A stretch of 41,239 nt of DNA from a virus. The translations under genes and the position numbers were made by a program. The DNA lies in the IMG/VR virus record IMGVR_UViG_3300037200_000043, positions 1 through 41,239 of that record. One strand, written 5' to 3'. The notes beneath the pieces were generated by a model. The model made no database searches, was not told the DNA's origin, and was given only the letters and a program-made list of their open reading frames with translations. This document shows, one piece after another, positions 1-41,239 of this stretch; positions within the stretch are counted from its first letter, which is position 1, and each line of letters starts with the position of its first letter.

Positions 1-24
1 GCAGGAAGGTGGGTTGAAGCATGA
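1..24 (+). CDS. 3' end of a hypothetical gene (partial; full copy at 40229-40558)
   Basis: The first eight codons read in frame to TGA and are identical to the last codons of the 110-residue gene at 40229-40558. This is the tail of that gene seen a second time because the window ends overlap. It is not a separate locus. The next gene starts inside its stop region (ATGA overlap at 21-24). Confidence 0.8.
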   Translation, partial: AGRWVEA

Positions 25-122
25 GAAATCCATCAGACGGAGTAGGAATAGAAGTTGTACTAATTTTACTTCTACTATTTGCCTATTTTGCAGTAATGTT
101 AACATATTTTAATGCGTGGTGA
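21..122 (+). CDS. 33-residue membrane miniprotein (copy 1)
   Basis: ATG at 21 overlaps the preceding stop (ATGA) and the frame ends at TGA 120-122. The protein starts MRNPSDGVGIEVV and continues as one hydrophobic helix rich in Leu, Phe and Tyr. It is a single-span miniprotein of unknown function. Its N-terminus resembles that of the protein at 40229-40558 (MNNPSDGVEVV), so the two gene starts are duplicated. The second copy at 40555-40656 is identical. Confidence 0.55.
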   Translation: MRNPSDGVGIEVVLILLLLFAYFAVMLTYFNAW

Positions 123-136
123 TAGGATAAATAACC

Positions 137-2072: not shown

Positions 2073-2406
2073 GCCAGTGGCAACCAAGTCGTTAACCGAA
2101 GATGTGGTTTCTAAGAGAGTTTGCGACCTCGGAGCTTTCATAAACTATCTTGAAAAGACTACACCTGAGAGCTGGGCGGTGGATGCCTTTATAGGCTGTT
2201 GCACAACTGGAAACAGGCACGAAGTATGTAGTCATGTAAAGGCTTATATCCGCCGTCAACAACTCGCTCTCATTTCACGGTTGGAAGAGAAAGCAATAGA
2301 GGGCTATCCGATACTAAAGTCTACTGGTAAGTTTAGAGCCATCCCTATTAGTGCCCTCACCGCCATACGCCAGGAGTTGGAGGGAATGGAAGATCTTGAC
2401 AGCTAG
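2059..2406 (+). CDS. hypothetical protein, 115 residues
   Basis: ATG at 2059 is preferred over an upstream in-frame ATG at 2023 because GGAG lies eight bases before it and the overlap with the previous gene is then only 14 bases. The protein begins MAKSKPVATKS and is basic at the N-terminus. It has CGG-like residues GCCTTGNRHEVC in the middle and a helical remainder. The stop codon overlaps the -35 box of the next promoter (2396-2401). Unknown function. Confidence 0.65.
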   Translation: MAKSKPVATKSLTEDVVSKRVCDLGAFINYLEKTTPESWAVDAFIGCCTTGNRHEVCSHVKAYIRRQQLALISRLEEKAIEGYPILKSTGKFRAIPISALTAIRQELEGMEDLDS

Positions 2407-2424
2407 AATACACTAGCGTAAACT
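2396..2424 (+). promoter_or_regulatory. early sigma70-type promoter with palindromic spacer
   Basis: TTGACA at 2396, 17-base spacer, then TAAACT at 2419. The spacer holds the inverted repeat GCTAG-N6-CTAGC (2402-2417), which is well placed for a repressor. The element matches the promoter at 39645 over TTGACAGCTA and the following TACAC, and both drive a leader with AATCAAGGAGCTAA before ATG. The transcript would begin near 2431 and serve the recombination block. Confidence 0.55.
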
Positions 2425-2452
2425 TAGAAGGTAAACTAATCAAGGAGCTAAA

Positions 2453-2875
2453 ATGAAAGATTTAAAAACCGTAATCGAAAGTGAAGTACTTGACCTATTC
2501 GCAACTGAGCAAACTATGCGAGAGGTAGAAAGTGAGTTACAGACTAACCCAACATTCCTAAAGTTCTTAGAACTACAAAAAGCTGTGAATGATAAAGCTG
2601 CTGAAGTGTGGAAGGCAGTCGGCAATCAAATGATAGATGCCTACAAAGCCGGTAAGGTAGATAAGACCCTCAAGTTTGACTTCGGTACTCTTACAGTTAA
2701 AGATATAAACGAACTGGATATAGATGAAAATCTTTTACCTCGTAATTACTTTAAGAGAGTGCCCCATACTACCAAAATCCGTAACGACTATGCCTTAGAG
2801 GGCAAGTTACCGAAGGGCGTAACCGTTACTAAGAAATACCAGTTTAGTAAGAGTCTTAAGAAAGTGGGGGAGTAA
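2453..2875 (+). CDS. Gp157-like / recombination-associated protein
   Basis: 140 residues, SD CAAGGAGC. The first 70 residues are predicted helical or coiled. The second half has the pattern LPRNYFKRV...K.IRNDYALEGKLPKGVTV, which resembles the C-terminal part of siphovirus Gp157-type proteins (LP..Y.......K..I...LK.G..IPG..L). Those genes commonly sit upstream of single-strand annealing proteins, as this one does (YopX and RecT follow). Family assignment is by motif memory only; a host-nuclease inhibitor or other recombination accessory role is equally possible. Confidence 0.55.
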   Translation: MKDLKTVIESEVLDLFATEQTMREVESELQTNPTFLKFLELQKAVNDKAAEVWKAVGNQMIDAYKAGKVDKTLKFDFGTLTVKDINELDIDENLLPRNYFKRVPHTTKIRNDYALEGKLPKGVTVTKKYQFSKSLKKVGE

Positions 2876-5052: not shown

Positions 5053-5597
5053 TTACTTTGCACGACTGCATACAGGGATCCGAGAAGTGGGCTTCATTGC
5101 GAGAGAATCTCTACACCGGCTCTAATGCGGATAAGCTTCTAAAGTTCGGCAAGATAGATTATGCACTTAGCCACCTTAATTCATTTCGTGGAAATAGATG
5201 GACTGAGAGAGGACACTTACTAGAGCCAGAAGCTATCGAACTATACGAAAAGATCACAGGCATAGATGTTCTAACTACAGGTTTAGTAACTAATGATAAG
5301 TACCCAGATGCCGCTTATTCTCCCGATGGACTTTTACCAGATACACTTATAGAAGTAAAATGCTTCGATGAGCCTAACCACATGGAACTGATTAACGCTA
5401 AACCTGACGAACTACCACTCAAGATACTAGCTCAGATATACTTCGGTATGGTTGTTTGTGAACTAAACAAGGGTAAGCTGATAGCCTATAATCCTAAGAT
5501 GAAAGAGGTAAAAGACAGGCTCAAGATTATAGAGATTAAGCCAAAGCGAGCGATAACCAGTAATTTTAAAAGAATAATGTTAGGAGGACGAACATGA
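5049..5597 (+). CDS. YqaJ-like phage exonuclease (PD-(D/E)XK)
   Basis: 182 residues. The N-terminal QGSEKWASLREN...TGSNADKLL is the usual YqaJ/lambda-exonuclease opening. The catalytic pattern YSPDGLL followed by IEVKC (about residues 93-108) supplies the metal-binding Asp, Glu and Lys, and LAQIYFGM matches the conserved Gln helix. It should resect double-strand ends 5'-3' to give substrate for RecT. Somewhat short, as the C-terminal region of larger members is missing. ATGA overlaps occur at both ends. Confidence 0.85.
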   Translation: MITLHDCIQGSEKWASLRENLYTGSNADKLLKFGKIDYALSHLNSFRGNRWTERGHLLEPEAIELYEKITGIDVLTTGLVTNDKYPDAAYSPDGLLPDTLIEVKCFDEPNHMELINAKPDELPLKILAQIYFGMVVCELNKGKLIAYNPKMKEVKDRLKIIEIKPKRAITSNFKRIMLGGRT

Positions 5598-6484
5598 ATA
5601 AGAAAAAAGTTAAACTGCAAATAACTAGTTGGTTAAACGGCTCAGTGCTATTCGAATATGAGTGTATTGATAATACTATTGCCAAAACAGTAACAGAGGC
5701 TGTAGCAGGCTCTGCCAACCTACGCTATGCCGACCTAGGCTCTGCCAACCTAGGCTCTGCCAACCTAGGCTCTGCCAACCTACGCTCTGCCAACCTAGGC
5801 TCTGCCAACCTAGGCTCTGCCAACCTACGCTATGCCAACCTACGATATGAAAACCTTGGCTCTGCCAACCTACGCTATGCCAACCTACGCTATGCCAACC
5901 TACGCTATGCCTACCTAGGCTCTGCCAACCTAGGCTCTGCCAACCTACGCTCTGCCAACCTACGCTATGCCGACCTAGGCTCTGCCAACCTAGGCTCTGC
6001 CAACCTACGCTATGCCGACCTAGGCTCTGCCAACCTACGCTCTGCCGACCTAGGCTCTGCCAACCTAGGCTCTGCCAACCTAGGCTATGCCGACCTAGGC
6101 TCTGCCAACCTACGCTATGCCGACCTAGGCTCTGCCAACCTACGCTATGCCAAGAACGCTAAACTGGCTATAGCTATGACCCGCATATTGCCGGAAGGCG
6201 ATATCATAGGCTGGAAGAAATGCAGAGACAATATAATTGTTAAACTTCTGATTCCAGCCAAAGCTAAACGCTCTCATGCTTTTGGTCGCAAATGTCGCGC
6301 CGAGTACGCCGAAGTGCTGCAAGTATATAAAGCTAAGGAAGCTATTAGTATTTATGATGCAAGTGTCGTTTACCGTAAGGGTGAAACGGTAAAGCCAAGT
6401 ATATGGGATGATGATTTTACAAATGAATGTTCAGGCGGAATACACTTTTACATAACCAAAGAGGAGTCCATCAATCATGAGTAG
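5594..6484 (+). CDS. pentapeptide-repeat protein with conserved C-terminal domain (DUF5758-like)
   Basis: 296 residues, SD AGGAGG. A short N-terminal strand domain (SWLNGSVLFEYECI) leads into about 29 five-residue repeats (A[ND]L[GR][SY], residues 39-186), which form a right-handed square beta-helix in known members. The C-terminal 110 residues (ILPEGDIIGWKKC, AKRSHAFGRKCRAEYAEV, GGIHFYITKEE) match the domain that often follows phage pentapeptide repeats. Some pentapeptide proteins mimic DNA and act on gyrase, but nothing here shows that target. The repeat DNA is almost uniform. Confidence 0.85.
   Translation: MNKKKVKLQITSWLNGSVLFEYECIDNTIAKTVTEAVAGSANLRYADLGSANLGSANLGSANLRSANLGSANLGSANLRYANLRYENLGSANLRYANLRYANLRYAYLGSANLGSANLRSANLRYADLGSANLGSANLRYADLGSANLRSADLGSANLGSANLGYADLGSANLRYADLGSANLRYAKNAKLAIAMTRILPEGDIIGWKKCRDNIIVKLLIPAKAKRSHAFGRKCRAEYAEVLQVYKAKEAISIYDASVVYRKGETVKPSIWDDDFTNECSGGIHFYITKEESINHE
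5708..6151 (+). repeat. 15-bp coding tandem repeat array in the pentapeptide gene
   Basis: About 29 units of 15 bases, built from one pattern: [GC]GC T[AC]T GCC [AG]AC CTA. Nearly all differences lie at three single positions (Gly/Arg, Tyr/Ser, Asn/Asp), with a few exceptions such as one GAAAACCTT unit and one Tyr unit. Synonymous sites are almost invariant, which points to recent slippage or gene conversion. Confidence 0.95.
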
Positions 6485-10904: not shown

Positions 10905-10927
10905 ATTGTCTCCTATTAAAATAAATA

Positions 10928-10964
10928 ACCGACACATCCGGTCGGCTTTACGGAAATTATAGCA
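10928..10964 (-). promoter_or_regulatory. extended -10 promoter followed by a 5' hairpin leader
   Basis: Minus-strand TGCTATAAT (10956-10964) puts the start near 10949. The hairpin GCCGAC-loop-GTCGG (10929-10946) comes next, then a U-rich tract and TAGGAG before the ATG at 10904. The hairpin shares GCCGACCGG with the leaders at 15980 and 35342. Confidence 0.55.
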
Positions 10965-10983: not shown

Positions 10984-11271
10984 ATGAGTAAGAACATCCC
11001 GTTAGGAGAAAATGTCCTTATTAAGGCCAGAACTTCAAGACAAAGTAAATACTTCAATGCACCTAAGTCAGAGTTTGATCAGACACAAACAGTAGGTACT
11101 CTAATGCTCATAGGGCCAGATGTACCACCTAGTTATGAAAAGATAGTCGGCAAGATTATCTACTTCCCATCCTTTCAAGAGGTCAAGGCTACCGCCGATC
11201 CAGATGCTCCGGAAGTATTTGTTAATTATAAGTTAATCGCAGGTTATGAAGAGGAGAGCAATGAACAATAA
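10984..11271 (+). CDS. groES: GroES-like co-chaperonin
   Basis: 95 residues. The order of conserved pieces fits GroES: IPLGENVLIKA at the N-terminus (PLxDRVLVK in bacteria), a central mobile-loop region (about 20-32), then VGTLMLIGPDVP, VGKIIYFPSF and VNYKLIAGYE. The canonical GGI mobile-loop tripeptide is absent, so the loop is divergent, as expected if it is matched to its own GroEL. It overlaps groEL by 11 bases. Assigned mainly from motif order and from the adjacent GroEL. Confidence 0.75.
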   Translation: MSKNIPLGENVLIKARTSRQSKYFNAPKSEFDQTQTVGTLMLIGPDVPPSYEKIVGKIIYFPSFQEVKATADPDAPEVFVNYKLIAGYEEESNEQ

Positions 11272-12844
11272 GTTTGCACGTAAAGTTGTCTACGGTCAAG
11301 AGTACGAAGAAGCTAAACTAAGAGGTTCTAACCTATCTAAATTGGTAGCTAAGTCCGCTTATGGCGTAGGTGCCGGCAATGTGATGATAGAGCGTAACTA
11401 TGGTGCTCCTGTTACTTCTAGAGACGGTGTCAGTAACCTTGAACAGTTGCATGTATCAGAACCTGTAGAGAATATGGTTATACAGACAATTGTAGGTGCG
11501 GCTCAACGGACTAACCAGCATGCAGGTGACGGAACTACGGCGACTGCTATCCTAGCCTCTGACCTGTATGAACAGGGTGTTAAGGATATGCGCGATACTG
11601 GTAAAAGCCCTATTCAGATATCTAACCAAATCCTTGAAACTTCACGTGAAGTCTATAAGTTCATAGACAGTAAAAAAGTTAAAGCTAATAAAAAAGACCT
11701 TAAGAACATTGCTCGTATCTCTTCCCATGACAACGCAATTGGAGATATGATTTCATTTGTCTTTGAGAAGTTTGGCGGTGACGGCGGAGTTGTCGTAGCT
11801 ACCCATGAGGGTGATGATACTAGTATGTCTATGGAAGATGGCTTTTATTTCAAGAAGGGCTTTACTAATCCAGTTTTAACTAATCGTCCAGGCATGAGAG
11901 AGTCCTACTTAACAGATATTCCAGTCTTAGTCATTAGTAAGGTATTAAAAACATCTAATGACTTAATAGGTATTTTTGAGAAGTTAGGTCAATATGCTGA
12001 AGAGGAGCAACATGTCCCCCTAGAATTTCTGATGGTAGCGGATGTTGAGGGCGAAGCATTAAACGGCTTATTGCAAAACGACCGCAAGTATCTTATTCCA
12101 ACTCTAGTTACTCCTCTTGATCACGGTGCTCGTAAAGATGCATTCTTTGAGGATATTGCAACTTATACCAACTCAAAAGTAATTAATAATAATGATTTTG
12201 ACTCTGGCTACTTCGGGCATGCTGACGAAGTGATTGTATCTGCATATACGACCAATATAATCGGCGGTGCGGCCTTAGAAGATATTGCACTTTCAGTAGA
12301 GGATATTGTTAAACAGACAGATGAGACTACCGATGCTTATGACCTTGAGTTCTTGAAAGAACGTAAAGACCGTTTACTCGGTAAAATTGCAACCATATCG
12401 GTTGGCGGCGAAACTGAGGAGATTAGAATTGAAAAGAAGCTCAGAGTTGACGATGCTGTGAACGCAGTACGATCAGCTAAACTCTATGGTATTCTGCCAG
12501 GTGAAGGTAGCGCACTATTATGGGCTGCCAAAGAAATATCTAACGCTGATACATATGGGAATCTGTTTCTCTATTTACTCGAAAACTGCGGCATTGATGA
12601 CCCATCCAGTTATGCCTATAAGGTTGTAGATGAGTCTAAGTTTGGTTTTGGTTATGATATCTCTGGTGAGTCACTACCTGAAGGGACTGATCGACAAACA
12701 CTTATAAATCTGCGTGAATATGGCATCGTTGACCCTGTGCAGGTTGTTTTAGAGACTGTCCGTAACGCTGCTGCTGTAGCTGCGCTGCTAGTTACAAGTA
12801 CCACAGGTATGTACTACGAAAACCGAGATGTTAAACAGGACTAA
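11261..12844 (+). CDS. groEL: phage-encoded GroEL-type chaperonin (type I)
   Basis: 527 residues from ATG 11261, SD GAGGAG. ATPase residues are kept: AGDGTTATA with Asp90 (GroEL Asp87) and RVDDAV with Asp398, plus SRDGV near residue 55 and GILPGEGSAL for the nucleotide pocket. The apical region (FGGDGGVVVATHEGDD...GFYFKKGF) is recognisable but divergent. The Gly-Met-rich tail of bacterial GroEL is missing; the protein ends ENRDVKQD. It probably folds phage virion proteins with the GroES-like partner. Not a fragment, since all three domains are present. Confidence 0.93.
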   Translation: MNNKFARKVVYGQEYEEAKLRGSNLSKLVAKSAYGVGAGNVMIERNYGAPVTSRDGVSNLEQLHVSEPVENMVIQTIVGAAQRTNQHAGDGTTATAILASDLYEQGVKDMRDTGKSPIQISNQILETSREVYKFIDSKKVKANKKDLKNIARISSHDNAIGDMISFVFEKFGGDGGVVVATHEGDDTSMSMEDGFYFKKGFTNPVLTNRPGMRESYLTDIPVLVISKVLKTSNDLIGIFEKLGQYAEEEQHVPLEFLMVADVEGEALNGLLQNDRKYLIPTLVTPLDHGARKDAFFEDIATYTNSKVINNNDFDSGYFGHADEVIVSAYTTNIIGGAALEDIALSVEDIVKQTDETTDAYDLEFLKERKDRLLGKIATISVGGETEEIRIEKKLRVDDAVNAVRSAKLYGILPGEGSALLWAAKEISNADTYGNLFLYLLENCGIDDPSSYAYKVVDESKFGFGYDISGESLPEGTDRQTLINLREYGIVDPVQVVLETVRNAAAVAALLVTSTTGMYYENRDVKQD

Positions 12845-14823: not shown

Positions 14824-15951
14824 TTAACTTACGTTTGTAATTGCACTAATCTTAGCTTGACGTCGTGGCTGGTTTGAAGTTAGCTGACCAAAGTAAGTGA
14901 TGACTGCGGTTTCAGACAACTGGTTTGGTACTCGCATAAAATCACGCATCTGCCAGATTGATTCAAGTGCTTTAGGAGCACCCTTGCTACCACTTGCGTT
15001 AATGTTAGCATCTGGAGCACCACCAGCAACGCCACGGGTTACTTTCATTTGACTAGGAATGAATCGTTGGTTGTGCATAGGAACTTTGAACAGGTTAAGG
15101 TAATTGCTGTTAAGCAAGTACAGAATACCGACAGGAGCGCTGTCATCTTTGAAGAATGAAGCTGCGCGGTAAGACATACCAGTGTATCCACCGACTGCAC
15201 TCATACCGCTAGACAAACGGATTTCACTAGGAGCATCACTTCGAGTAGCATCTTGAGCAAGGTCTGAACCAGTAGTGATATAACGGCCTTGGTTAGTTGG
15301 CTGGAATAGGCTTTCTAGTAATGTCCATACTGCCGACGGAGTAATTGCGAAGTCAGTAGTTTCTGAAGCGATACCACCAGCTGAAGCAGCGTCAATAGCT
15401 TGGCTAATTGTGCCAAGGGCTAGTGTTCCACCAGCTGCAGGATATACTTGTGCGTTTACCCATGGGTTAGTTGCACGAGTTACACCACCGTAAGAAGCTG
15501 TATTCGCACCAGCGTCCACAACGTTCTCTAGGCCGTAAATGTTGTTGCCACCACCGGCGCTATAAACACCAGCTGCAAAACGTAGGCGTAGTGATTCTTG
15601 AGCTGCGTCCATTTTCTGCTCTACAAGGCGAACGGCTGCCCGCATATTATTTTCGTTAATGCTTCGCTCTGCGTCAGAGATAGCGACAGTTTGCATAACA
15701 AGTGATGGACCGAATGATAGGGTTTGCATTGTATTTGTAACTGCGAATGACAGAGTATCCATTGAGTTAATGAAACCACCAGTTGGAGAGGTTGAGGTCA
15801 TTACTGGGTCGATCTGAATAGGACCACCGCCCCAGCGCTGTGCTTTGGTGCTTAAATACTTAACAAGAGTTGTGGAGTAGGTAATGTTATCTACTACACG
15901 AGGAGCAATCTTTGTGTAGGTGACTAAGCCTAAATCTGATGTAAACTGCAT
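14824..15951 (-). CDS. major capsid protein (HK97-fold type)
   Basis: 375 residues. Placement after scaffold and portal, length and content fit a major capsid protein: an N-terminal arm, a long helix with MRAAVRLVEQKMDAAQESLR (spine-helix-like, about 103-122), then beta-rich segments (IYGLENVVDAG...) and a C-terminal domain with FKVPMHNQRFIPS. No obvious protease delta domain precedes it; the separate acidic scaffold gene fills that role. It has its own promoter-hairpin leader. Confidence 0.85.
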   Translation of the reverse strand: MQFTSDLGLVTYTKIAPRVVDNITYSTTLVKYLSTKAQRWGGGPIQIDPVMTSTSPTGGFINSMDTLSFAVTNTMQTLSFGPSLVMQTVAISDAERSINENNMRAAVRLVEQKMDAAQESLRLRFAAGVYSAGGGNNIYGLENVVDAGANTASYGGVTRATNPWVNAQVYPAAGGTLALGTISQAIDAASAGGIASETTDFAITPSAVWTLLESLFQPTNQGRYITTGSDLAQDATRSDAPSEIRLSSGMSAVGGYTGMSYRAASFFKDDSAPVGILYLLNSNYLNLFKVPMHNQRFIPSQMKVTRGVAGGAPDANINASGSKGAPKALESIWQMRDFMRVPNQLSETAVITYFGQLTSNQPRRQAKISAITNVS

Positions 15952-15979
15952 ATTTTACCTTTCTTATATAAATAAAAAA

Positions 15980-16017
15980 CCGACCATGCCGGTCGGCTCT
16001 ATGTTAAGAGTATAACA
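15980..16017 (-). promoter_or_regulatory. promoter with terminator-like 5' hairpin before the capsid gene
   Basis: Minus-strand TGTTATACT (16009-16017) gives a start near 16002. The perfect stem CCGACC/GGTCGG (15980-15996 with flanking pairs) follows within about five bases, then six U and an AU-rich stretch, GAAAGG and the ATG at 15951. Read alone it looks like an intrinsic terminator, yet it lies between the promoter and its gene. Confidence 0.6.
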
Positions 16018-17286: not shown

Positions 17287-19719
17287 TTATTGAGTTAATT
17301 GAGGAACAGGTTGTTGTGGCATTTGCGACGGTTGAGGAACCTGCGGAGCTTGCGGTTGAGGTTGCATCGGCTGCTGCGGTTGCTGTGGCTGTTGAGGAAC
17401 TCCCGTCTGCTGAATCTGTTGCTGCGCTCTACCTGCTTCTTCTTGTAAGTTCTGAGGGGACAATCCCATTGCTGCTAACTCTTGAATAGAGTAGAAGTGG
17501 TTAGGGTCTATAGTCTGACCATTTGGAGTGACTAACTGACCTTGTGCATTCTTATATGTTGTTGCTGGAGGAGCTTGCGCTGGCGTTGATGGAGTTTGTG
17601 ACTGTGGGGACATCGGTGTTCCGTCAGGATTTAACCCTACTTGCTGAGCTGCTTGGGCAGCTCCTGGAATTGTTGGATCAGATGCCCCACCTGGCACTCC
17701 TGCACCTTCTGCCTGAACTACAGTTCCTATTTGTACAGGAGTGAACTTAAGGTCTGGCTCAAGCGCCATCACACCCTGTTTAGCGGCATTAGCAACGATC
17801 TTACGCTTCAGGTTCTCAATAATGACCTTTTGCATATAGTCATTAAACCTCTTCTGAGCCTTCTTGCTCGTCTTGCTCGTGTCCAGGAACTCTGGAGATA
17901 CGGTTAGGTCACGCATAGCCTTAATAAAGCCATCTGAACTTTCCGAAATTTCAACTTCAGGTTCATCTTCAAAACGCTCTAGAATTTGTTGGGCGGTGAA
18001 CTCATAATTTTCGCTGCTCTCCTTACGTGCCAGAGATGTTGGGTCTTGAGTAAATTGGATATAGTTGTCGTATAGTTCTTGGGGATTCTCAATGCCACTA
18101 ATCTTATAGTAGTCCAAGAGTGCAATAGCCTTATTGTCTAGTAGATTCTCAGCGATAGCCTGTTGCTCGGCCTTATTTATAGGCAGAGTTGAACCACCCT
18201 CAACGTGAATTTCCACCTTAGTATCAATCATGCCACGGGATATAAATATTCTCTTATAGCCACTGTTAGATGAACTTGTAAAAGAGTGTCGCTTTATAAA
18301 CCAGACACTCATCATGTGAGCTAGTAATCGGTAGTAGTCGGTATAGAATTTGTCTATAGAGCGAGTCATTAAGTCTAACCGACCTTGTGCCTGGTCTTTC
18401 TTAATCTCCGATTGACCAAGAGTCGGGGAAGTATCACCATTATCGCCTGCACCCGTAAGGACATCTGGAGCACCAATCATAGCCAGAGTTTGCGTTCGTA
18501 AGTCCTGCTTCTGCGCTAAGAGTTCCGGTGATACGACTGAGGCAGGTACAACACCGAATTGTTGTTCAGTATTACTGCCTTGCGGTACATTGGTAAGCGT
18601 AATAACGGCCTTGGTAGCTAGTTTATCTGCTGAGACGGCGTCATCTTCGGTAAGCGTATCTCCGTTAACTACAATTGTAGGATTACTGCGAAGTGAACTT
18701 TCAAGCGAGTGACGGCCAGCAAGGTTCAGGAAGTCTTGCATAATTCTACCTTGCTCAACAGGGTTTGTTTTATCTATAAGCAGTCGGCCGTCAGAACTAA
18801 TATTACAGAAGATAAAAGGTTTCGGGGGTGTCTTTATAATATTCAAACTATCATCTACATAACTAAAGTTGGGGTTTTTGCTTTTCTCTAGGATACAATC
18901 ATCGCAATAATATATGACACCTTCTTGCGGTTCAAACTTACTATCGTAATAGGTAAACCATGACTCTCCAAGGATTAAAAGAACATCGAGATCAGGTTTG
19001 CCATTTTCAGTGGAAACCGATGCTAATTCTAGTATCTTTTCTTTTTTATTAGGCCATCTGTGTATCATCTCTGAAGCTGTCATCGGAGATTTATAATCAA
19101 GAAGCCGAGGATTACCACCATAAGGAGTGTGGTTGTCGACGGTTAGGTTCTGAGGGTCTATCAGTTTTGGAACGATATCACCATCCTCTCCCTCGTCTGG
19201 GTCGAACTCTAACTTTACACATCCGATATAAGACAAGCCAGAATCGTTAACAACCTTGGCGGCGATATCTCTAAATTCAAATTTATCATTATGAGCATCT
19301 AGAACTTTCTCAAAGAATACTCCAAAGCGTTTTGCAGTATCACTGTCCGAAGACGGATAGACATTTGGCTGCGCAATACGATTCGTAAGATAGGCGAGTA
19401 CTGCTGACCAACCCACCCATATCTGATTTTCAGAATAAGGAATTTGTGCGGCTTTTAATTTGTTCTGTATCTGGTAACCGTCAAAGTATAGTTTATTAAG
19501 TCGCCTCTTTTCAGATAGGTTGTAGCCGTCATCGGTTGAATCGTCCCAATCACTCTTTGCGGTTTCTACACGTGTTTTCAGGTTCTGTAATAGCTCATCA
19601 TCATTAATAGTAATGTCCATACTGCCGAGGGACTCAATAATACCCTCTTGCCCGGTAAGGTCTCCTTGTGAAACCGTGCCAGAGTTTCTGCTAAACATTC
19701 CTGTAAAATCGTTATTCAT
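17287..19719 (-). CDS. portal protein (P22-like podovirus type)
   Basis: 810 residues, close to the P22-type portal length plus a tail. An N-terminal SEKRRLNKLYFDGYQI..LKA region, NRIAQPNVYPSSDSD, a conserved PPKPFIFCNIS segment, and the helical stem and crown region up to about residue 660 (DFLNLAGRHSLESSLRSNPTI; QKQDLRTQTLAMIGAPDVLTG) support a portal. The last 150 residues are dominated by Pro and Gln (QQPQQPMQPQPQ), a low-complexity extension that may enter the head. It forms the dodecameric DNA channel and packaging vertex. Confidence 0.82.
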   Translation of the reverse strand: MNNDFTGMFSRNSGTVSQGDLTGQEGIIESLGSMDITINDDELLQNLKTRVETAKSDWDDSTDDGYNLSEKRRLNKLYFDGYQIQNKLKAAQIPYSENQIWVGWSAVLAYLTNRIAQPNVYPSSDSDTAKRFGVFFEKVLDAHNDKFEFRDIAAKVVNDSGLSYIGCVKLEFDPDEGEDGDIVPKLIDPQNLTVDNHTPYGGNPRLLDYKSPMTASEMIHRWPNKKEKILELASVSTENGKPDLDVLLILGESWFTYYDSKFEPQEGVIYYCDDCILEKSKNPNFSYVDDSLNIIKTPPKPFIFCNISSDGRLLIDKTNPVEQGRIMQDFLNLAGRHSLESSLRSNPTIVVNGDTLTEDDAVSADKLATKAVITLTNVPQGSNTEQQFGVVPASVVSPELLAQKQDLRTQTLAMIGAPDVLTGAGDNGDTSPTLGQSEIKKDQAQGRLDLMTRSIDKFYTDYYRLLAHMMSVWFIKRHSFTSSSNSGYKRIFISRGMIDTKVEIHVEGGSTLPINKAEQQAIAENLLDNKAIALLDYYKISGIENPQELYDNYIQFTQDPTSLARKESSENYEFTAQQILERFEDEPEVEISESSDGFIKAMRDLTVSPEFLDTSKTSKKAQKRFNDYMQKVIIENLKRKIVANAAKQGVMALEPDLKFTPVQIGTVVQAEGAGVPGGASDPTIPGAAQAAQQVGLNPDGTPMSPQSQTPSTPAQAPPATTYKNAQGQLVTPNGQTIDPNHFYSIQELAAMGLSPQNLQEEAGRAQQQIQQTGVPQQPQQPQQPMQPQPQAPQVPQPSQMPQQPVPQLTQ

Positions 19720-21767: not shown

Positions 21768-23959
21768 TAGAAGTTACCGACATTCCCAGCCATGCTAGTA
21801 AGTGCCGGGATTGAACCACCGCCCTGAGCAACAGATGGAGCACTTCCAGCCACACCGAGAGCGTTAAGCTGTGCCTGAGCATTAGCTGCTTGAGTTTTAT
21901 ATGTGTTTTCAGCTGTGCCAGGGATTAGACCTAAGATCCCACCAAGTATGCCACCCTGTCCCATTTGGCCTCGTGCAGCAAGTAGGTTAGCGGCAGCTGT
22001 TCTAGCAGCCTGATTTTGGTTAGCGTTTGCTAACAGGGTTTGACCCATAGTCCCTGCTTCTCCAGCATTAGTGTCAAAAGTAGGAGCAAAGACTGATCGT
22101 ATCTCTCCCTCTTGGCCTAAGTATCTTTGTAAAGCGTTAGACTGATTTAATATGTTTTGCGTCTGTTGATACTGTGGGTTGTTTAATTCCGCATTTGCTT
22201 GGCTTGCTTGGTTAGACGTACCGACAGCATTAGCTCCAAGACCCAATGCGCCTATTATTCCTGCTAGTAGGGCTTTTTTTCCTAGTGGACTCATTCCTTT
22301 TCCTCCTGTATTAGTTACTGTACCGCCTAAATCTGATGCGCCAGCAGGAAATGCCGTGGCTTCTCCTGGTTTGGCTATAGCCTTTGAAGCCGTACGAGCA
22401 GCTTTTACTCGCATTTTACCAGCAGTTCCAGATCCCATTATGTTTTTAGATAATCCTCCACGTCCTCCTGCAGCAAGATCATATATAGACGCCCCACCTG
22501 TAGCCTTAGAATACGCTTTACTGGCATTTACCCAAGGAGCTGTAAAACTACGGAGCTGATTAACATTACTTATTGTTCCATCGGATAATCCTTTTTGGAG
22601 TGCAGCGTATTGCGTAGGATTTGACTCGGCAAAGCCTGATTCTTGCAGATTACTTAATACGTTTTGAGCACCTTCTTTAGTAACAGCTATTTGTCCAAGT
22701 TGATCTTTGAGCGCACCAGATATGCCGTTATATAAATCGGCTTCACCATTTGACTTAGCTTTTGAGGCCATTGATGCAAAGTTTCTCTGGGTCTGAAGCA
22801 CATCTACCGGATTAGCATTTTTCATACCTTGAGATGTAAGTTCATAGCCACCTGTTGGAGATTTGATAAGATCACCAGCTGCTACTGCTTCATCAACGGT
22901 TCGATAACCATTAGCACCTGCTCCAGCAAGCGTGACGTTCTGATCCTGAATAGCATTATTGAATATTTTACGTTGAGCGTCCGTATATGCCACTCCACCA
23001 GAACCTTTTCCTGTAGTACCACGTGTAGCCTGATTAACAAATGAGTTACGGTTATTATCCCCTGTTAAATCAGTCACGTCTATAGTTGTCGGATTAGCGA
23101 CACTGTCTCCAACTGCTGCCTGCTTAACCATATTATTGACTGCATTATCAACACCATAATCTTGCCCTGTAAGGGTTTGGGCGTCACGTGCCATAGTAGG
23201 GTAGTCTGAATAGCCAAGATCAAGAGCCTGGTTTGCTAAGTTATTCATGTCTCCGGCAGGTAGCTTCATACCAGCACCCTGCATGGTGGTTGTCATTCCT
23301 GCTAAACCTTCATTTCGTATACGTTGCTGTAAGGGGGATAGCTGAGGAGTGGTATTAGCTGCTTGTGGAGTATAGCGAGACGTGGCATCTGCTCCGGTTC
23401 TTGGAGTAATAGTAACTGGCTCCTCGGGGGTTGGTGCAAGATTAAGTTGGGTTCCAGAAGGAGTTTCTGCAGGGGTTGCTGGAGGGGTAAACGTGTTATT
23501 AGTATCAGCTTTAACCGTCCCCGTTTCAGGATTCGTAATAAGATTTACGTGTCCTTGACCTGACTCTGGGTCTAGATTCGTAGGTGCAATACCTGGATTG
23601 TCGGCTGAGGTAACGTTTCCTTGTGGGTCTACAGTAAACCTAGGTTCAGTCGGTGACGTAGTTGCTGCGTCTGTAGCTCCACTATCAGCTAGATCAGAAG
23701 CGGCAGTATCTGCTACATCAGCGGCTGCTTTACCGCCTGCGCCCATCATTCCTCCCATTAAGCCATCTGATATTCCTGTCTGAAGATCTTGTCCAAGATT
23801 CTGCGACTTTCCCTGAATCGCATTAGAAGCGGCCGATGCGACTCCTCCAAGAGCCATACGTGCAGGAATGCCAATCTCTGGCACAATGAAAGGTAAGATA
23901 TTTAATACTGAACCGAGGATACCAGATAATGGATTACTGCCCGATGATTGTGGTTGCAT
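21767..23959 (-). CDS. putative large DNA ejection / internal virion protein 3
   Basis: 730 residues. Gly/Ala-rich hydrophobic stretches at the N-terminus (SVLNILPFIVPEIGIPARMALGG) and near residues 560-580 (KKALLAGIIGALGLGANAV) could insert in the host membrane, while the middle is Asn/Gln/Thr-rich with helical modules. Resembles large injected proteins with membrane-active ends. No lytic transglycosylase motif seen. First gene of the ejection set, with its own promoter-hairpin leader. Confidence 0.55.
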   Translation of the reverse strand: MQPQSSGSNPLSGILGSVLNILPFIVPEIGIPARMALGGVASAASNAIQGKSQNLGQDLQTGISDGLMGGMMGAGGKAAADVADTAASDLADSGATDAATTSPTEPRFTVDPQGNVTSADNPGIAPTNLDPESGQGHVNLITNPETGTVKADTNNTFTPPATPAETPSGTQLNLAPTPEEPVTITPRTGADATSRYTPQAANTTPQLSPLQQRIRNEGLAGMTTTMQGAGMKLPAGDMNNLANQALDLGYSDYPTMARDAQTLTGQDYGVDNAVNNMVKQAAVGDSVANPTTIDVTDLTGDNNRNSFVNQATRGTTGKGSGGVAYTDAQRKIFNNAIQDQNVTLAGAGANGYRTVDEAVAAGDLIKSPTGGYELTSQGMKNANPVDVLQTQRNFASMASKAKSNGEADLYNGISGALKDQLGQIAVTKEGAQNVLSNLQESGFAESNPTQYAALQKGLSDGTISNVNQLRSFTAPWVNASKAYSKATGGASIYDLAAGGRGGLSKNIMGSGTAGKMRVKAARTASKAIAKPGEATAFPAGASDLGGTVTNTGGKGMSPLGKKALLAGIIGALGLGANAVGTSNQASQANAELNNPQYQQTQNILNQSNALQRYLGQEGEIRSVFAPTFDTNAGEAGTMGQTLLANANQNQAARTAAANLLAARGQMGQGGILGGILGLIPGTAENTYKTQAANAQAQLNALGVAGSAPSVAQGGGSIPALTSMAGNVGNF

Positions 23960-23980
23960 GTTGTCTCCTATAAAAAAATA

Positions 23981-24021
23981 GACCGTCAGAATGCTGACGG
24001 TCGTCTTTAGTTATTGTAGCA
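23981..24021 (-). promoter_or_regulatory. promoter with 5' hairpin leader before the ejection-protein operon
   Basis: Minus-strand TGCTACAAT (24013-24021), start near 24006, then a perfect nine-base-pair stem GACCGTCAG/CTGACGGTC with a four-base loop (23981-24002), a run of U, TAGGAG and ATG at 23959. Same order as at 15980, 29115, 35342 and 10928. Confidence 0.6.
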
Positions 24022-28129: not shown

Positions 28130-29095
28130 TTAATACCCTGGGCTTACCGGAGCTATACCCATGTAATCCCAAGCGTTCATACCTGTTACTTCCATATCGC
28201 TTGAAACACGAGAAGTTGACCTTGCGCTGAAAGACTGACGGAAGTCATCAAGACACCCTTGGAATAGAGCCATATAGTCTTGTTCGGTTTGTGTGTCTTT
28301 TCGTCCGGCGTAGAACTGAGCAGCGGCGTTATATGATCCAGCTAATTGAACCATGTCTGGTAAGTCTTCCATTTGGCCGATTCTAAACTGGGCTGTTGCG
28401 GAAGTCTGACCTGGTAACTGGAAATTCTGTCCGAGTACAATGTCTGATTCATCGGTGATTGATGCTACTTGGTAAACATGGCCGTCTGTCCCGTCAGTTG
28501 TCATGAAATAAAGATTGTTACAGGGCACATTTATGATCGGCTCTGAGAACGACACCAAGTTACTATCGTTAACTACGTCAGCCGTAACGGGTGTACTGGG
28601 GTTCGCTGTGGTGTAAATATTAGAAGTGCTACTGATATCGTCAATAGCCATTTCAGGTGGTGTTGCTTCGTAGGTGATAATCAGTCCAGCAGTTTGAGCT
28701 GCGCCTGGAGTTGGCCAGAGTCCTACTTGATTGTGTCCTCTAACAAAATAGTATGTTGGCCAGGGGAAAGACAGTTGAGGCCAGACATTAATCTCGTTCC
28801 ATTTTGCAATAGTTGGCACTTCAATTAAAGGTAACGTTGCAAACAGACCCTGAGCCACAACCTGAATAGTCGTAGGGCGGATACAGTCTGGTGCCGTTTG
28901 GTAATATTGCTGGTTAGCTACTAAGTTACTGGTCAAAGTATTTTGCGTATAGCCAACTCTAGCAGTTGTAAATATCTTAGCAATGCCACGATTAACATCA
29001 CGCTTCAGGTCAATCAGTAAATCAGCAGGGATATTCCTAGGATTGACTCCACAGAATTTAGCTGCTCTTTTATATAAATCTGTAAAAGTATCCAT
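28130..29095 (-). CDS. head-tail connector / adaptor-type protein
   Basis: 321 residues. The helical N-terminus (DTFTDLYKRAAKFCGV..LIDLKRDVNRGIAKIF), a middle with FPWPTYYFVRGHNQVGLWPTPG and LIITYEATPPEM, and a helical C-terminus (AQFYAGRKDTQTEQDYMALFQGCLDDF) match the layout of adaptor proteins that bind below the portal; LWPTP is typical of that family. Own promoter-hairpin leader at 29115. Confidence 0.65.
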   Translation of the reverse strand: MDTFTDLYKRAAKFCGVNPRNIPADLLIDLKRDVNRGIAKIFTTARVGYTQNTLTSNLVANQQYYQTAPDCIRPTTIQVVAQGLFATLPLIEVPTIAKWNEINVWPQLSFPWPTYYFVRGHNQVGLWPTPGAAQTAGLIITYEATPPEMAIDDISSTSNIYTTANPSTPVTADVVNDSNLVSFSEPIINVPCNNLYFMTTDGTDGHVYQVASITDESDIVLGQNFQLPGQTSATAQFRIGQMEDLPDMVQLAGSYNAAAQFYAGRKDTQTEQDYMALFQGCLDDFRQSFSARSTSRVSSDMEVTGMNAWDYMGIAPVSPGY

Positions 29096-29114
29096 TTAAT
29101 CTCCAATTAAAATA

Positions 29115-29153
29115 GCAGACCCATCAGCAGGTCTGCTTTTCTATATTTTAGCA
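29115..29153 (-). promoter_or_regulatory. promoter with 5' hairpin leader before the connector gene
   Basis: Minus-strand TGCTAAAAT (29145-29153) gives a start near 29138, followed within two bases by the seven-pair stem GCAGACC/GGTCTGC (29115-29136), a U-rich tract, TTGGAG and ATG at 29095. Confidence 0.55.
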
Positions 29154-38010: not shown

Positions 38011-38097
38011 TTAAAGTTCAAAATCTACAGTAAACGAATCTATAACTGCACCTAGTATTATTCCGACTATTACTGACGATAGCATTAGTAGTAACAT
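38011..38097 (-). CDS. 28-residue membrane miniprotein
   Basis: ATG at 38097 is preceded by CTAAGGAGCTAAT, the same SD block as the early genes at 2453, 39707 and 39799, and by the promoter at 38127. The product is one hydrophobic helix (LMLSSVIVGIILGAVI) with a short acidic end. Unknown function. Confidence 0.5.
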   Translation of the reverse strand: MLLLMLSSVIVGIILGAVIDSFTVDFEL

Positions 38098-38126
38098 ATT
38101 AGCTCCTTAGTTTATATTACGTTGAC

Positions 38127-38738: not shown

Positions 38739-38788
38739 GTTGCGCAACGCCATCAAGCGTTGACAGCATATTATTACTTTGCGATAAT
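38739..38788 (+). promoter_or_regulatory. operator-like repeats and near-consensus early promoter
   Basis: TTGACA (38760-38765), 17 bases, GATAAT (38783-38788): the strongest promoter in the window. The inverted repeat CAACGC-N6-GCGTTG (38745-38762) overlaps the -35, and the palindrome GTTGCGCAAC (38739-38748) abuts it, so a repressor site is likely. Start near 38795. Confidence 0.65.
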
Positions 38789-38794
38789 ATAGTC

Positions 38795-38862
38795 AAGTTC
38801 AAATTTGACGAACGAGAGAAACGCTATCAAGACCCCAGCCTAAAAACTGGGGTTTCTCTTTT
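38795..38862 (+). ncRNA. candidate short terminated transcript (leader or small RNA)
   Basis: From the 38760 promoter a transcript of about 68 nt would reach CCCCAG-N8-CTGGGG (38833-38852) with a U-rich tail to 38862, an intrinsic terminator. GAGAAAC before it can also pair with GUUUCUC after it. A second promoter follows at 38865 for the next gene, so the first transcript may end here as a small RNA, or be an attenuator relieved by a regulator. No reading frame of note. Confidence 0.5.
38833..38862 (+). terminator. intrinsic terminator
   Basis: Six GC-rich pairs (CCCCAG/CTGGGG), eight-base loop, then TTTCTCTTTT. Plus-strand orientation. Confidence 0.75.
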
Positions 38863-38897: not shown

Positions 38898-39086
38898 ATG
38901 CTCGGAACACTTTTAATCGTAATATGGGGAATTCTAACCTGTACTAGTCAGTACTTCTTAAGTTGGATAACATTTACTCCAAATGGGCTTAAGATTCTAG
39001 GAGTGGTGGGCTTAGTTGGCTTTGCTCTTTGGTTGTTTAGTAGCTACTATCGGCACACCAATCCTAACGGTGCATGGTGGTTTTAA
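38898..39086 (+). CDS. two-span membrane miniprotein, 62 residues
   Basis: ATG 38898 is five bases after AAAGGAG (a GTG two codons earlier is an alternative). Two hydrophobic segments (TLLIVIWGILTCTSQYFLSW and ILGVVGLVGFALWLFSSYY) separated by a short turn, then a polar tail HTNPNGAWWF. First gene of this early transcript. A holin-like or host-membrane role is possible but not shown. Confidence 0.55.
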   Translation: MLGTLLIVIWGILTCTSQYFLSWITFTPNGLKILGVVGLVGFALWLFSSYYRHTNPNGAWWF

Positions 39087-39087
39087 A

Positions 39088-39153
39088 ATGCTTTGGACTA
39101 TTCTAATCATCGTTTTAATTATCTGTGGTATTATCTGGATATCGCATCATTAA
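39088..39153 (+). CDS. 21-residue membrane micropeptide
   Basis: ATG begins two bases after the previous stop and the product (MLWTILIIVLIICGIIWISHH) is a single hydrophobic helix. Very short and without its own SD; translation would rely on re-initiation. Plausible but unproven. Confidence 0.35.
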   Translation: MLWTILIIVLIICGIIWISHH

Positions 39154-39219
39154 ACTAAAAACAGCTCACGTTAGAGAATAACCAAGGAGCTTAATCTTAG
39201 AAGACTCTGTGAGCTGTTT
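39153..39219 (-). ncRNA. candidate phage small RNA with anti-Shine-Dalgarno loop
   Basis: Minus-strand promoter TGGTATAAT (39225-39233) gives a start at about 39218, the first base of the stem AACAGCUCAC. An 11-bp perfect stem (39209-39219 with 39159-39169) closes a 39-base loop and is followed by UUUUU-type termination. The loop (complement of 39180-39193) reads UAAGCUCCUUGGUU, complementary to the SD leaders (AAUCAAGGAGCU / AACUAAGGAGCU) of the genes at 2453, 39707, 39799 and 38097. A large-loop bidirectional terminator is the alternative. Confidence 0.5.
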
Positions 39220-39430
39220 AATCAATTATACCATTTTCATCCGCAGGACTGAAGTGGTACTCTCCATTAGTGTCCCGCCCACTACTACGATCTACTGCCG
39301 GTAATTCATTAGTGTTTATAAAATTGAGCTTATAATGTTCAGCTAATATTTCATTCTCAGCCAGACCGGCATCAATAATAGCTAGTATCTCATCTACGGA
39401 ATTATGCCGCGTCGAAGGGTTCTTTTCCAT
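39218..39430 (-). CDS. hypothetical protein, 70 residues
   Basis: ATG at 39430 (a TTG at 39436 adds two residues). Helical N-terminal half (SVDEILAIIDAGLAENEILAEHY), polar remainder. Its last codons (Gly-Ile-Ile-Asp) are the TGGTATAAT of the small-RNA promoter, and its TAA lies in the RNA stem. It overlaps the upstream gene. Opposite in direction to the surrounding early genes, so a regulatory role is possible. Unknown family. Confidence 0.5.
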   Translation of the reverse strand: MEKNPSTRHNSVDEILAIIDAGLAENEILAEHYKLNFINTNELPAVDRSSGRDTNGEYHFSPADENGIID

Positions 39431-39593
39431 AACCAATACTTAACTGTTCATATGCTTCATCAGCTTGCATTACACCTTGAATAACCTGATGACCTAGCCA
39501 ATGCTCTTTAATGTAATGGTCACTTTGAAAAGGTTGCGGCTCATGTCCAATAACAATATCTTTGACTAGTTTTAATAGCTTATGCTTTTCCAT
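39402..39593 (-). CDS. hypothetical protein, 63 residues
   Basis: Start chosen at ATG 39593 because the promoter TTGTTA-N17-TATATT (39600-39628, minus strand) would start transcription at that ATG; the longer frame to 39635 lacks an SD and runs through the promoter. Helical start (MEKHKLLKLVKDIVIG), then a His/Gln-rich middle. Opposed to the early operon, so possibly a regulator. No recognised motif. Confidence 0.45.
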   Translation of the reverse strand: MEKHKLLKLVKDIVIGHEPQPFQSDHYIKEHWLGHQVIQGVMQADEAYEQLSIGYGKEPFDAA

Positions 39594-39628: not shown

Positions 39629-39644
39629 TATGCAAATATTAGGC

Positions 39645-39674
39645 TTGACAGCTAAAGTACACAGGGTATATACT
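39645..39674 (+). promoter_or_regulatory. early sigma70-type promoter
   Basis: TTGACA, 18 bases, TATACT. The first 20 bases match the promoter at 2396 closely, and the leader ends in the same AATCAAGGAGCTAA. Start near 39681. Confidence 0.65.
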
Positions 39675-39706
39675 CAAAGCATTATCAACATAATCAAGGA
39701 GCTAAC

Positions 39707-39766
39707 ATGTACGACTTTTCCGGCGAGTGGAAAGAACGACAGGTATTCATTGCTTTAGAGCAATAA
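39707..39766 (+). CDS. 19-residue micropeptide
   Basis: Strong SD CAAGGAGCTAAC before ATG. Product MYDFSGEWKERQVFIALEQ. It is the first frame after the 39645 promoter. With such a perfect leader it is probably translated, either as a peptide in its own right or as a leader that loads ribosomes. Confidence 0.45.
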   Translation: MYDFSGEWKERQVFIALEQ

Positions 39767-39798
39767 CATTAAAACTACAAAATAACTAAGGAGCTACT

Positions 39799-39969
39799 AT
39801 GCGTACAGCAACAACAAAACAAGTAGAACAATCAGTATTTGGCCAGTTATCTACCTGGTCAATCATAATCGGTGCTACCAAAGAACTTTACAAGCGGTTT
39901 GACACAACAATTTGGATAACACTAGCATGGTTAGAATTTGCCTATATCATCTGGACGAAATTAGGATAA
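39799..39969 (+). CDS. hypothetical protein, 56 residues
   Basis: SD CTAAGGAGCTACT. Helical, with an aromatic C-terminal segment (TTIWITLAWLEFAYIIWTKLG) that probably spans or lies on the membrane. Unknown function. Confidence 0.5.
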   Translation: MRTATTKQVEQSVFGQLSTWSIIIGATKELYKRFDTTIWITLAWLEFAYIIWTKLG

Positions 39970-40232: not shown

Positions 40233-40558
40233 ATAATCCATCAGACGGAGTAGAAGTTGTAATAATGCCAGACAATAATCCTAAAGAACCTTTCTTAGTA
40301 GATCCTGGATGGACTAAATCTATATTCGTACCGCATACAGGCGGTGACAGCTATAGGGTATTGTTTTACAAAGACGGCAATGTCCGTTTTGAACATCGCT
40401 GTGTTAATGAAGAGCAAGGCGGAAGTGTAATCGCTGCACCATCACTAAGTAAACACACTATCGAATCAAAAAAACCCCTAACAATATCGCCCTCAATTTT
40501 ATGCCCAAGATGTAACTTACACGGCTTCATTACAGCAGGAAGGTGGGTTGAAGCATGA
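40229..40558 (+). CDS. hypothetical protein, 109 residues
   Basis: ATG 40229 follows AGGGGAGGA and overlaps the previous TGA (a TTG at 40220 is an alternative). Starts MNNPSDGVEVVIMPDNNPK; the middle is beta-rich (FVPHTGGDSYRVLFYKDGNVRFEHRC) and the end has a CPRCNLHGFI zinc knuckle. The first dozen residues resemble those of the following membrane miniprotein. Its last 24 bases recur at 1-24. Confidence 0.6.
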   Translation: MNNPSDGVEVVIMPDNNPKEPFLVDPGWTKSIFVPHTGGDSYRVLFYKDGNVRFEHRCVNEEQGGSVIAAPSLSKHTIESKKPLTISPSILCPRCNLHGFITAGRWVEA

Positions 40559-40661
40559 GAAATCCATCAGACGGAGTAGGAATAGAAGTTGTACTAATTT
40601 TACTTCTACTATTTGCCTATTTTGCAGTAATGTTAACATATTTTAATGCGTGGTGATAGGA
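40535..40661 (+). repeat. 127-bp exact direct repeat, copy 2
   Basis: Identical to 1-127. After it, this copy continues into 40662-41222, holding two genes that the left-end copy lacks, while the left-end copy continues into a 16-base spacer. Consistent with two genome versions, one with and one without a 561-base segment. Confidence 0.9.
40555..40656 (+). CDS. 33-residue membrane miniprotein (copy 2)
   Basis: Same as 21-122: ATGA overlap with the previous gene, then MRNPSDGVGIEVV and a single membrane helix. Probably one locus shown twice because the window ends overlap. Confidence 0.55.
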   Translation: MRNPSDGVGIEVVLILLLLFAYFAVMLTYFNAW

Positions 40662-40667
40662 ATAAAT

Positions 40668-41000
40668 ATGCTTGAAGATTTACCGGGAAACCCCATGAAA
40701 GACCTATCTATACGAAAAGAGATTGACAAGCTATTGTGGGCTTTTAGTGGAACACATACAGGTAATTTTGGTATGGATAGCGATATTGTTGATATGTTTA
40801 CGGATAAATTAGAAGCATTACTAACCTTACATATAAGGGAAGCTAGGATTGACGAACTGGAACAACTAGAGTTTATAGATTGGGAAAGTTATCATCACGA
40901 AAAGAAGAACTATGATGATAGTACAAATTATCTTATAGATGAATATGTTGGTAAATACACCAAAGACCGTATTTTAGAATTACAAAGAGAGGATAAATAA
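40668..41000 (+). CDS. hypothetical protein, 110 residues
   Basis: ATG 40668 (a GTG at 40650 in frame is less likely), SD TAGGA. Acidic and helical (KEIDKLLWAFSGTHTG...DIVDMFTDKLEALLTLHIREARIDELEQLEFIDW). Belongs to a group of small phage proteins with no known function. Lies in the segment present only at the right end. Confidence 0.6.
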   Translation: MLEDLPGNPMKDLSIRKEIDKLLWAFSGTHTGNFGMDSDIVDMFTDKLEALLTLHIREARIDELEQLEFIDWESYHHEKKNYDDSTNYLIDEYVGKYTKDRILELQREDK

Positions 41001-41001
41001 G

Positions 41002-41226
41002 ATGAACCTATATCTAGTAGAAAGAACTGACGATGTTGGCTATGATGAATATGACGCTTTTATAGTATCAGCGACTAGCGAGGGTCAAGCTCAGGAGTGC
41101 ATAAATATTAAACATGGCCCCAATGATAGTTATAGTGAATGGTCGAATAAAGTTACTGTTAACTTAATCGGTACTTATAAAGGCGACAAGTCGGAAATCA
41201 TACTAGGTAGTTTCAATGCGGGATAA
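41002..41226 (+). CDS. conserved small phage protein, 74 residues
   Basis: Starts MNLYLVERTDDVGYDEYDAFIVSATSE and ends IILGSFNAG; both ends match a small protein that recurs in many phages and whose function is not known. One base after the previous gene. The stop codon overlaps the 17-base match to 144-160. Confidence 0.75.
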   Translation: MNLYLVERTDDVGYDEYDAFIVSATSEGQAQECINIKHGPNDSYSEWSNKVTVNLIGTYKGDKSEIILGSFNAG

Positions 41227-41239
41227 ACCTACACAATAT
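41223..41239 (+). repeat. 17-bp terminal match to 144-160
   Basis: The final 17 bases are identical to 144-160, directly before the SD of the gene at 178. This closes the circle: right-end genes lead into the left-end operon. Confidence 0.8.

What the first reader, a model, noticed from the sequence alone, without database searches (positions are those of the whole stretch)
39153..39233. Candidate phage small RNA whose loop pairs with the phage's own SD leaders
Seen: minus-strand TGGTATAAT, a predicted start at the first base of an 11-bp perfect stem, a 39-base loop and a U tract. The loop holds UAAGCUCCUUGGUU. The leaders at 2453 and 39707 (AAUCAAGGAGCU) and at 39799 and 38097 (AACUAAGGAGCU) can each pair with it over 12 contiguous positions, counting one G-U pair. 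Four targets with near-identical leaders suggest co-evolution. Known: C-rich CUCCUU loops of bacterial sRNAs block ribosome binding. Inference: this RNA would repress or time early and membrane-protein synthesis. The null is a bidirectional terminator, but a 39-base loop is odd for one, and the promoter position is striking.
Basis: partly seen in the sequence, partly recalled or inferred. Interest (0 to 1): 0.8.

Follow-up and report, generated by a model that had tools for sequence, protein, structure and literature searches.

The report
Phage hairpin antisense to its leaders
At the end of a small phage operon sits a hairpin whose loop is the complement of the ribosome-binding leaders of four of the phage's own genes; the match is real and not chance, but whether it is a regulatory RNA or only a transcription stop signal carrying a leader-like sequence cannot be settled from sequence alone.

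Summary
Window 39159-39219 has perfect 11-bp arms, a 39-nt loop, T5 on the minus strand, and an extended -10 (TGGTATAAT) that puts the predicted start within 1 nt of the stem. The loop pairs with the four named leaders over 12-15 contiguous positions (-17.4 to -20.7 kcal/mol; about -10 to -12 after opening costs; next-best leader tested -4.3). None of 2,500 random 39-mers had even two targets this strong. But the pairing means only that the plus strand reads as a fifth, ATG-less leader (AATAACCAAGGAGCT), and two of the 'co-evolving' leaders belong to a duplicated promoter-leader cassette. The hairpin also abuts the stop codon of a probably real leftward gene, so it is very likely that operon's terminator. 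No relative was found in the collections searched, so conservation, the deciding test, could not be tested. Favouring an RNA: four of the phage's eight extended -10 sites lie 31-60 nt before a gene, and four late leaders carry a hairpin shortly after a -10-like hexamer. Best reading: a terminator doubling as a ~65-nt 3'UTR-derived RNA that blocks its leaders (about 0.4), nearly tied with a plain terminator. Side finding: in Cluster K1 mycobacteriophages the 'reverse' start-associated sequence lies in a hairpin loop.

The parts
39225..39233 (-). Extended -10 element TGGTATAAT (weak -35, TTCAGT); inside the last codons of ORF 39218-39430
39209..39219 (-). 5' arm of stem, AAACAGCTCAC; predicted RNA start at 39218 +/- 1
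39170..39208 (-). 39-nt loop, with a weak inner fold (AGAG/CTCT and CTAAG/CTTGG)
39177..39191 (-). Anti-leader segment AGCUCCUUGGUUAUU; on the plus strand AATAACCAAGGAGCT, a leader-like SD without ATG
39159..39169 (-). 3' arm of stem, GTGAGCTGTTT
39157..39161 (-). T5 run (overlaps the stem end), then AGTTT: intrinsic-terminator tail
39218..39430 (-). 70-aa ORF ending at the stem base; best-scoring of six frames; probably a real gene served by this terminator
39402..39593 (-). 63-aa ORF upstream in the same leftward operon; same coding score; no known relatives
2437..2449 (+). Leader target 1 (gene 2453, early): UAAUCAAGGAGCU, 13-nt helix, net -9.9 kcal/mol
39690..39703 (+). Leader target 2 (19-aa ORF at 39707): AUAAUCAAGGAGCU, 14-nt helix, net -12.3
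39781..39795 (+). Leader target 3 (56-aa ORF at 39799): AAUAACUAAGGAGCU, 15-nt helix, net -12.4
38101..38112 (-). Leader target 4 (28-aa hydrophobic ORF at 38097): AACUAAGGAGCU, 12-nt helix, net -11.5

Best explanation
The hairpin is the intrinsic terminator of the leftward two-gene operon 39593-39218 and probably also the body of a short RNA of about 60-65 nt, made either from the extended -10 promoter in the last codons of the upstream gene (like type I 3'UTR-derived sRNAs) or by processing of the operon mRNA. Its loop would pair in trans with the SD leaders of 2453, 39707, 39799 and 38097 and block 30S binding, so lowering or timing their translation. Shown: the anatomy, the pairing and its specificity within this genome. 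Inferred: that the RNA exists, and the repression.
For: Perfect arms plus T5 tail. Four leaders at net -9.9 to -12.4 kcal/mol against -4.3 or weaker for the other leaders tested; 0 of 2,500 random 39-mers with two or more targets at <= -17, and 0 of 1,000 shuffled loops with four at <= -14. Of the hairpins with stem >= 9 and loop 6-45 in the window, its sister phage and part of a more distant relative, this is the only one with such targets. Extended -10 is used by this phage: four of its eight TGNTATAAT sites lie 31-60 nt before a gene, and four late 5' leaders have a hairpin beginning about 7-10 nt after a -10-like hexamer, close to the geometry here (5 nt). Loop similarity to the leaders is confined to the 15 nt that would pair; sequence upstream shows no extra similarity.
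Against: No transcript data and no homologue, so no conservation or covariation. The -35 is 3 of 6. The anti-SD part is half inside a weak inner helix (opening cost 5.4 kcal/mol). ORFs 39402-39593 and 39218-39430 look coding, so a terminator is expected here without any RNA function. Antisense copies of the genuine leaders score as well as this loop, so the result equals 'the plus strand is leader-like'. The nearest design analogue, the Cluster K hairpin, keeps its stem while its loop varies in more distant relatives.
Confidence: 0.42

Rival explanations
1. Plain intrinsic terminator of the leftward operon. The leader-like sequence in its long loop is a remnant of a plus-strand leader that lost its start codon when genes between the convergent operons were lost; the TATAAT in the last codons is incidental.
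For: Position directly after a stop codon between convergent genes; coding scores of both leftward ORFs; the region is full of duplicated leaders and cassettes; the plus strand keeps AATAACCAAGGAGCT in the same spelling as real leaders; similar sequences elsewhere in IMG/VR include ordinary ATG leaders.
Against: 39-nt loop, whereas the clear terminator-like hairpins of this phage have loops of 3-8 (that scan allows only 3-8, so the contrast is partly built in). A decayed leader must happen to fall inside a perfect 11-bp repeat, with a promoter-like element in register with the stem base. Upstream and ATG-side similarity to leaders is absent.
Confidence: 0.38
2. A minus-strand promoter with a 5'-end hairpin, like the phage's late 5' leaders, that reads leftward into 38529-35627 as an extra start for the late operon; the loop is incidental.
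For: Four late genes have -10-like hexamer, hairpin, U-rich stretch, SD and ATG in this order; the late genes lie downstream on the same strand.
Against: No SD or real gene follows the U tract (only an 11-codon frame); transcription would run antisense through the plus-strand ORFs 38898-39153; does not explain the loop.
Confidence: 0.1
3. The functional strand is plus: a hairpin presenting an SD in its loop, as a ribosome decoy or an RBS for an ORF with a non-ATG start.
For: Plus-strand fold -21 kcal/mol, z -4.2; SD with leader spelling; the sister phage has a real RBS with its SD in a hairpin loop (G001 18531-18556).
Against: No ATG, GTG or TTG at SD distance; weak T tail on the plus strand; the SD is partly paired in the fold.
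Confidence: 0.07

Closest known systems
LhrC / RsaE type sRNAs with C- or CU-rich loops that bind SD sequences (LhrC: PMC4132741)
   Same: CU-rich segment in a loop (in LhrC also the terminator loop) complementary to leaders at the SD; several targets
   Different: Bacterial and experimentally shown; the motif there is UCCC, here CUCCUU with further matched leader bases on both sides; here one copy and no expression data
Type I 3'UTR-derived sRNAs (MicL, DapZ; PMC7821165)
   Same: Promoter within or just after a CDS and use of the mRNA's terminator
   Different: Those are bacterial genes and characterised RNAs; here the promoter is only a sequence match
Phage antisense RNAs P22 sar, lambda OOP, aQ (PMC12197685)
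   Same: Small phage RNA against a phage mRNA; sar interferes with translation initiation
   Different: Those are antisense to one gene; this would act in trans on four short leaders
Start-associated sequences (SAS/ESAS) of Cluster K and EF actinophages (PMC3203893, PMC7302621)
   Same: Short repeated leader motif containing the SD before ATG, some with promoter-bearing upstream repeats; Cluster K1 has one reverse copy which I find in a hairpin loop
   Different: Only four copies here, of 12-15 nt rather than 13 bp in 11-19 copies; unrelated phages and sequence; no function known for SAS

Membership tests
Trans-acting anti-SD small RNA | Discrete transcript with its own 5' and 3' ends | not testable with these tools
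   No RNA data; only an extended -10 and a T5 tail
Trans-acting anti-SD small RNA | Specific complementarity to the SD region of target mRNAs | tested here: met
   12-15 nt contiguous, net -9.9 to -12.4 kcal/mol on four leaders only
Trans-acting anti-SD small RNA | Pairing segment conserved in relatives | tested here: inconclusive
   No relatives found for the element or its flanking ORFs
Type I 3'UTR-derived sRNA | Promoter in or just after the CDS, terminator shared with the mRNA | tested here: inconclusive
   TGGTATAAT in the last codons with a -35 of 3/6; hairpin and T5 after the stop codon; CDS probably real
Intrinsic terminator | GC-containing stem followed by a U tract at an operon end | tested here: met
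   11-bp stem, T5, directly after the stop at 39218; loop of 39 nt is atypical
Start-associated sequences (SAS) | Repeated motif extending beyond the SD, a few bases before start codons | tested here: met
   Four leaders share AAYYAAGGAGCT with ATG 11 nt from the first A of AAGGAG; few copies, so SAS-like only, no homology claimed
Rfam RNA families | Match above gathering score | tested here: not met
   None in the window

The most novel reading that the evidence does not exclude
Phages that use a repeated extended-SD leader on a set of genes also carry a single antisense copy of that leader displayed in a hairpin loop, as a phage-made switch that turns the whole leader regulon down; this window and some Cluster K1 mycobacteriophages would be two independent inventions.
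Probability: 0.2. Interest if true: 0.75.

Novelty: new variant of a known kind. Interest (0 to 1): 0.45.

Why it matters
The phage regulatory RNAs described in the review I read act on single phage genes or on host RNAs. An RNA that acts in trans on a family of the phage's own leaders would be a simple way to time a set of early genes, and would give a testable role to the repeated start-associated sequences whose function has been open since 2011 and whose authors raised a phage RNA as a possible ligand (PMC3203893).

Tried and rejected
Relatives: a terminase scan found one sister (L002/G001, 91% aa), but its accessory region differs and it has no AAGGAGCT at all. Neighbouring proteins 39402-39593, 39218-39430 and 2453-2875 gave none; 38898-39086 gave only an 11-residue match, not followed. 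Stem and loop DNA patterns gave only unrelated hits, and a leader-loop pattern gave 12 contigs without the hairpin. Homology of the loop to a whole leader cassette: not above upstream-shuffled controls. Rfam: none. Cluster EF phage AnnaSerena: no reverse SAS; hairpins with leader matches there are at a high GC-driven background. The first Cluster K pair count used a structure in the wrong register; one search replaces it.

Full report
WHAT IS THERE. The window is an IMG/VR phage record, 43% GC. Between a short plus-strand ORF ending at 39153 and a minus-strand ORF ending at 39218 lies a gap of 64 bases almost filled by one inverted repeat: arms 39159-39169 and 39209-39219, 11 of 11 paired, 39 bases between. 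On the minus strand it is preceded by TGGTATAAT (39233-39225) and followed by TTTTTAGTTT. The -35 is poor (TTCAGT).

IS IT MORE THAN CHANCE. An 11-bp perfect repeat with a spacer up to 60 is expected 0.45 times per shuffled window, and a second one lies inside a gene (1525-1595), so the stem alone proves little; one followed by a T-rich tail is expected 0.017 times. The loop pairs with the leaders of 2453 (13 nt), 39707 (14), 39799 (15) and 38097 (12), at -17.4 to -20.7 kcal/mol for the helix and -9.9 to -12.4 after paying to open both RNAs; every other leader tested is at -4.3 or weaker. No random 39-mer of 2,500 had even two targets at -17, and 0.12% had four at -14. In six phage genomes or parts of genomes compared, no other hairpin had three targets at -14, except in the GC-rich AnnaSerena, where 12% of random 39-mers do so.

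WHAT THE COMPLEMENTARITY MEANS. Read on the plus strand the loop is AATAACCAAGGAGCTTAAT: a leader without a start codon. Most other AAGGAG sites outside genes in the window stand 11-16 nt before an ATG. The antisense of genuine members of the leader family scores about as well as this loop. So the fact to explain is one event, a leader-like 15-mer in the loop. Two of the leaders also come from a duplicated promoter-leader cassette (2395-2463 and 39644-39718). Similarity of the loop to the cassettes stops at the 15-mer: upstream sequence is no more similar than shuffles, and the ATG side is gone. That is what an antisense segment would look like, and also what an old leader remnant could look like.

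SURROUNDINGS. The leftward ORFs 39402-39593 and 39218-39430 have codon scores of +0.06 per codon, against -0.29 (sd 0.18) for shadow ORFs, and are the best of their six frames. They are probably genes, so a terminator is expected exactly here. The phage uses extended -10 elements: of eight TGNTATAAT sites, four lie 31-60 nt before a gene start (3.1 such motifs in all expected by shuffling). Four late 5' leaders (10905, 15951, 23959, 29095) show a -10-like hexamer, then after about 7-10 nt a hairpin, a U-rich stretch, SD and ATG. A hairpin beginning near the predicted transcription start is thus a habit of this phage, which makes the promoter at 39233 more believable.

RELATIVES. The only close phage (terminase 91% aa) has a different accessory region and no AAGGAGCT. 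Flanking proteins and the element itself have no relatives in IMG/VR, INPHARED phages or GTDB genomes as far as the scans reach.

AN ANALOGUE. [quoted passage not shown]). In Anaya and CrimD that copy lies exactly in the 10-nt loop (CCUCCUAUCC) of a strong hairpin in the intergenic region before gene 97 (Anaya) or 94 (CrimD), downstream of a TTGNNN..TTTTAGACT promoter-like element and a terminator-like hairpin. In Adephagia late transcription is reported to begin between genes 92 and 93 (PMC11373665), which I take, by gene order, to be the same place. Over 17 relatives the stem is supported: 93% of cells paired and eight two-sided changes against 2.9 in shuffles. The loop is CCUCCUAUCC in most Anaya-like phages fetched and pyrimidine-rich in Amginevirus and Unicornvirus members, but unrelated in Marshawn, SirPhilip, KiSi and MarkPhew, although Marshawn and KiSi still have SAS leaders.

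VERDICT. The hairpin is very probably a terminator. That it also yields a small RNA acting on the four leaders is the best single explanation of loop, promoter position and specificity together (0.42), hardly ahead of a terminator with a leader remnant in its loop (0.38). Mechanism if real: the loop covers the SD of each leader and blocks 30S binding; this step is inferred from sRNAs such as LhrC (PMC4132741).

Noticed in passing
L012:29850-29902 (Anaya, record about 59849-59901) and L013:28815-28867 (CrimD); also L014-L021: The single reverse-orientation SAS of Cluster K1 mycobacteriophages lies in the loop of a hairpin whose stem covaries across Cluster K; the loop is CCUCCUAUCC in most K1 phages fetched, CU-rich in Amginevirus/Unicornvirus and unrelated in others. 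Possible anti-SAS element near the reported late-transcription start.
   Followed up: partly
window 10905-10956, 15951-16009, 23959-24020, 29095-29150 (minus strand): Repeated late 5'-leader module: -10-like hexamer, about 7-10 nt, GC-rich hairpin, U-rich stretch, SD, ATG.
   Followed up: partly
window 38760-38862 (plus strand): Near-consensus promoter (TTGACA-17-GATAAT with TG) followed by a hairpin ACCCCAG..CTGGGGT and TTTCTCTTTT before gene 38898: candidate ~65-nt leader RNA or attenuator.
   Followed up: no
window 2395-2463 and 39644-39718: Duplicated promoter-leader cassette (TTGACAGCTA...AATCAAGGAGCTAA.ATG), 76.6% identical.
   Followed up: partly
window 11246-12844: Phage-encoded GroEL (phrog_5725, E 7e-79); the more distant relative MW202566 also carries a groEL.
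   Followed up: no
window 1-133, 40535-40668, 41226-41239: Near-identical repeat at the two ends (99.3%) and an end sequence matching about 144-158: probably a circular or terminally redundant genome, or an assembly of variants.
   Followed up: no
window 5707-6161: Short tandem-repeat array inside ORF 5594-6484 (many offset self-matches spaced by multiples of about 15 bp).
   Followed up: no
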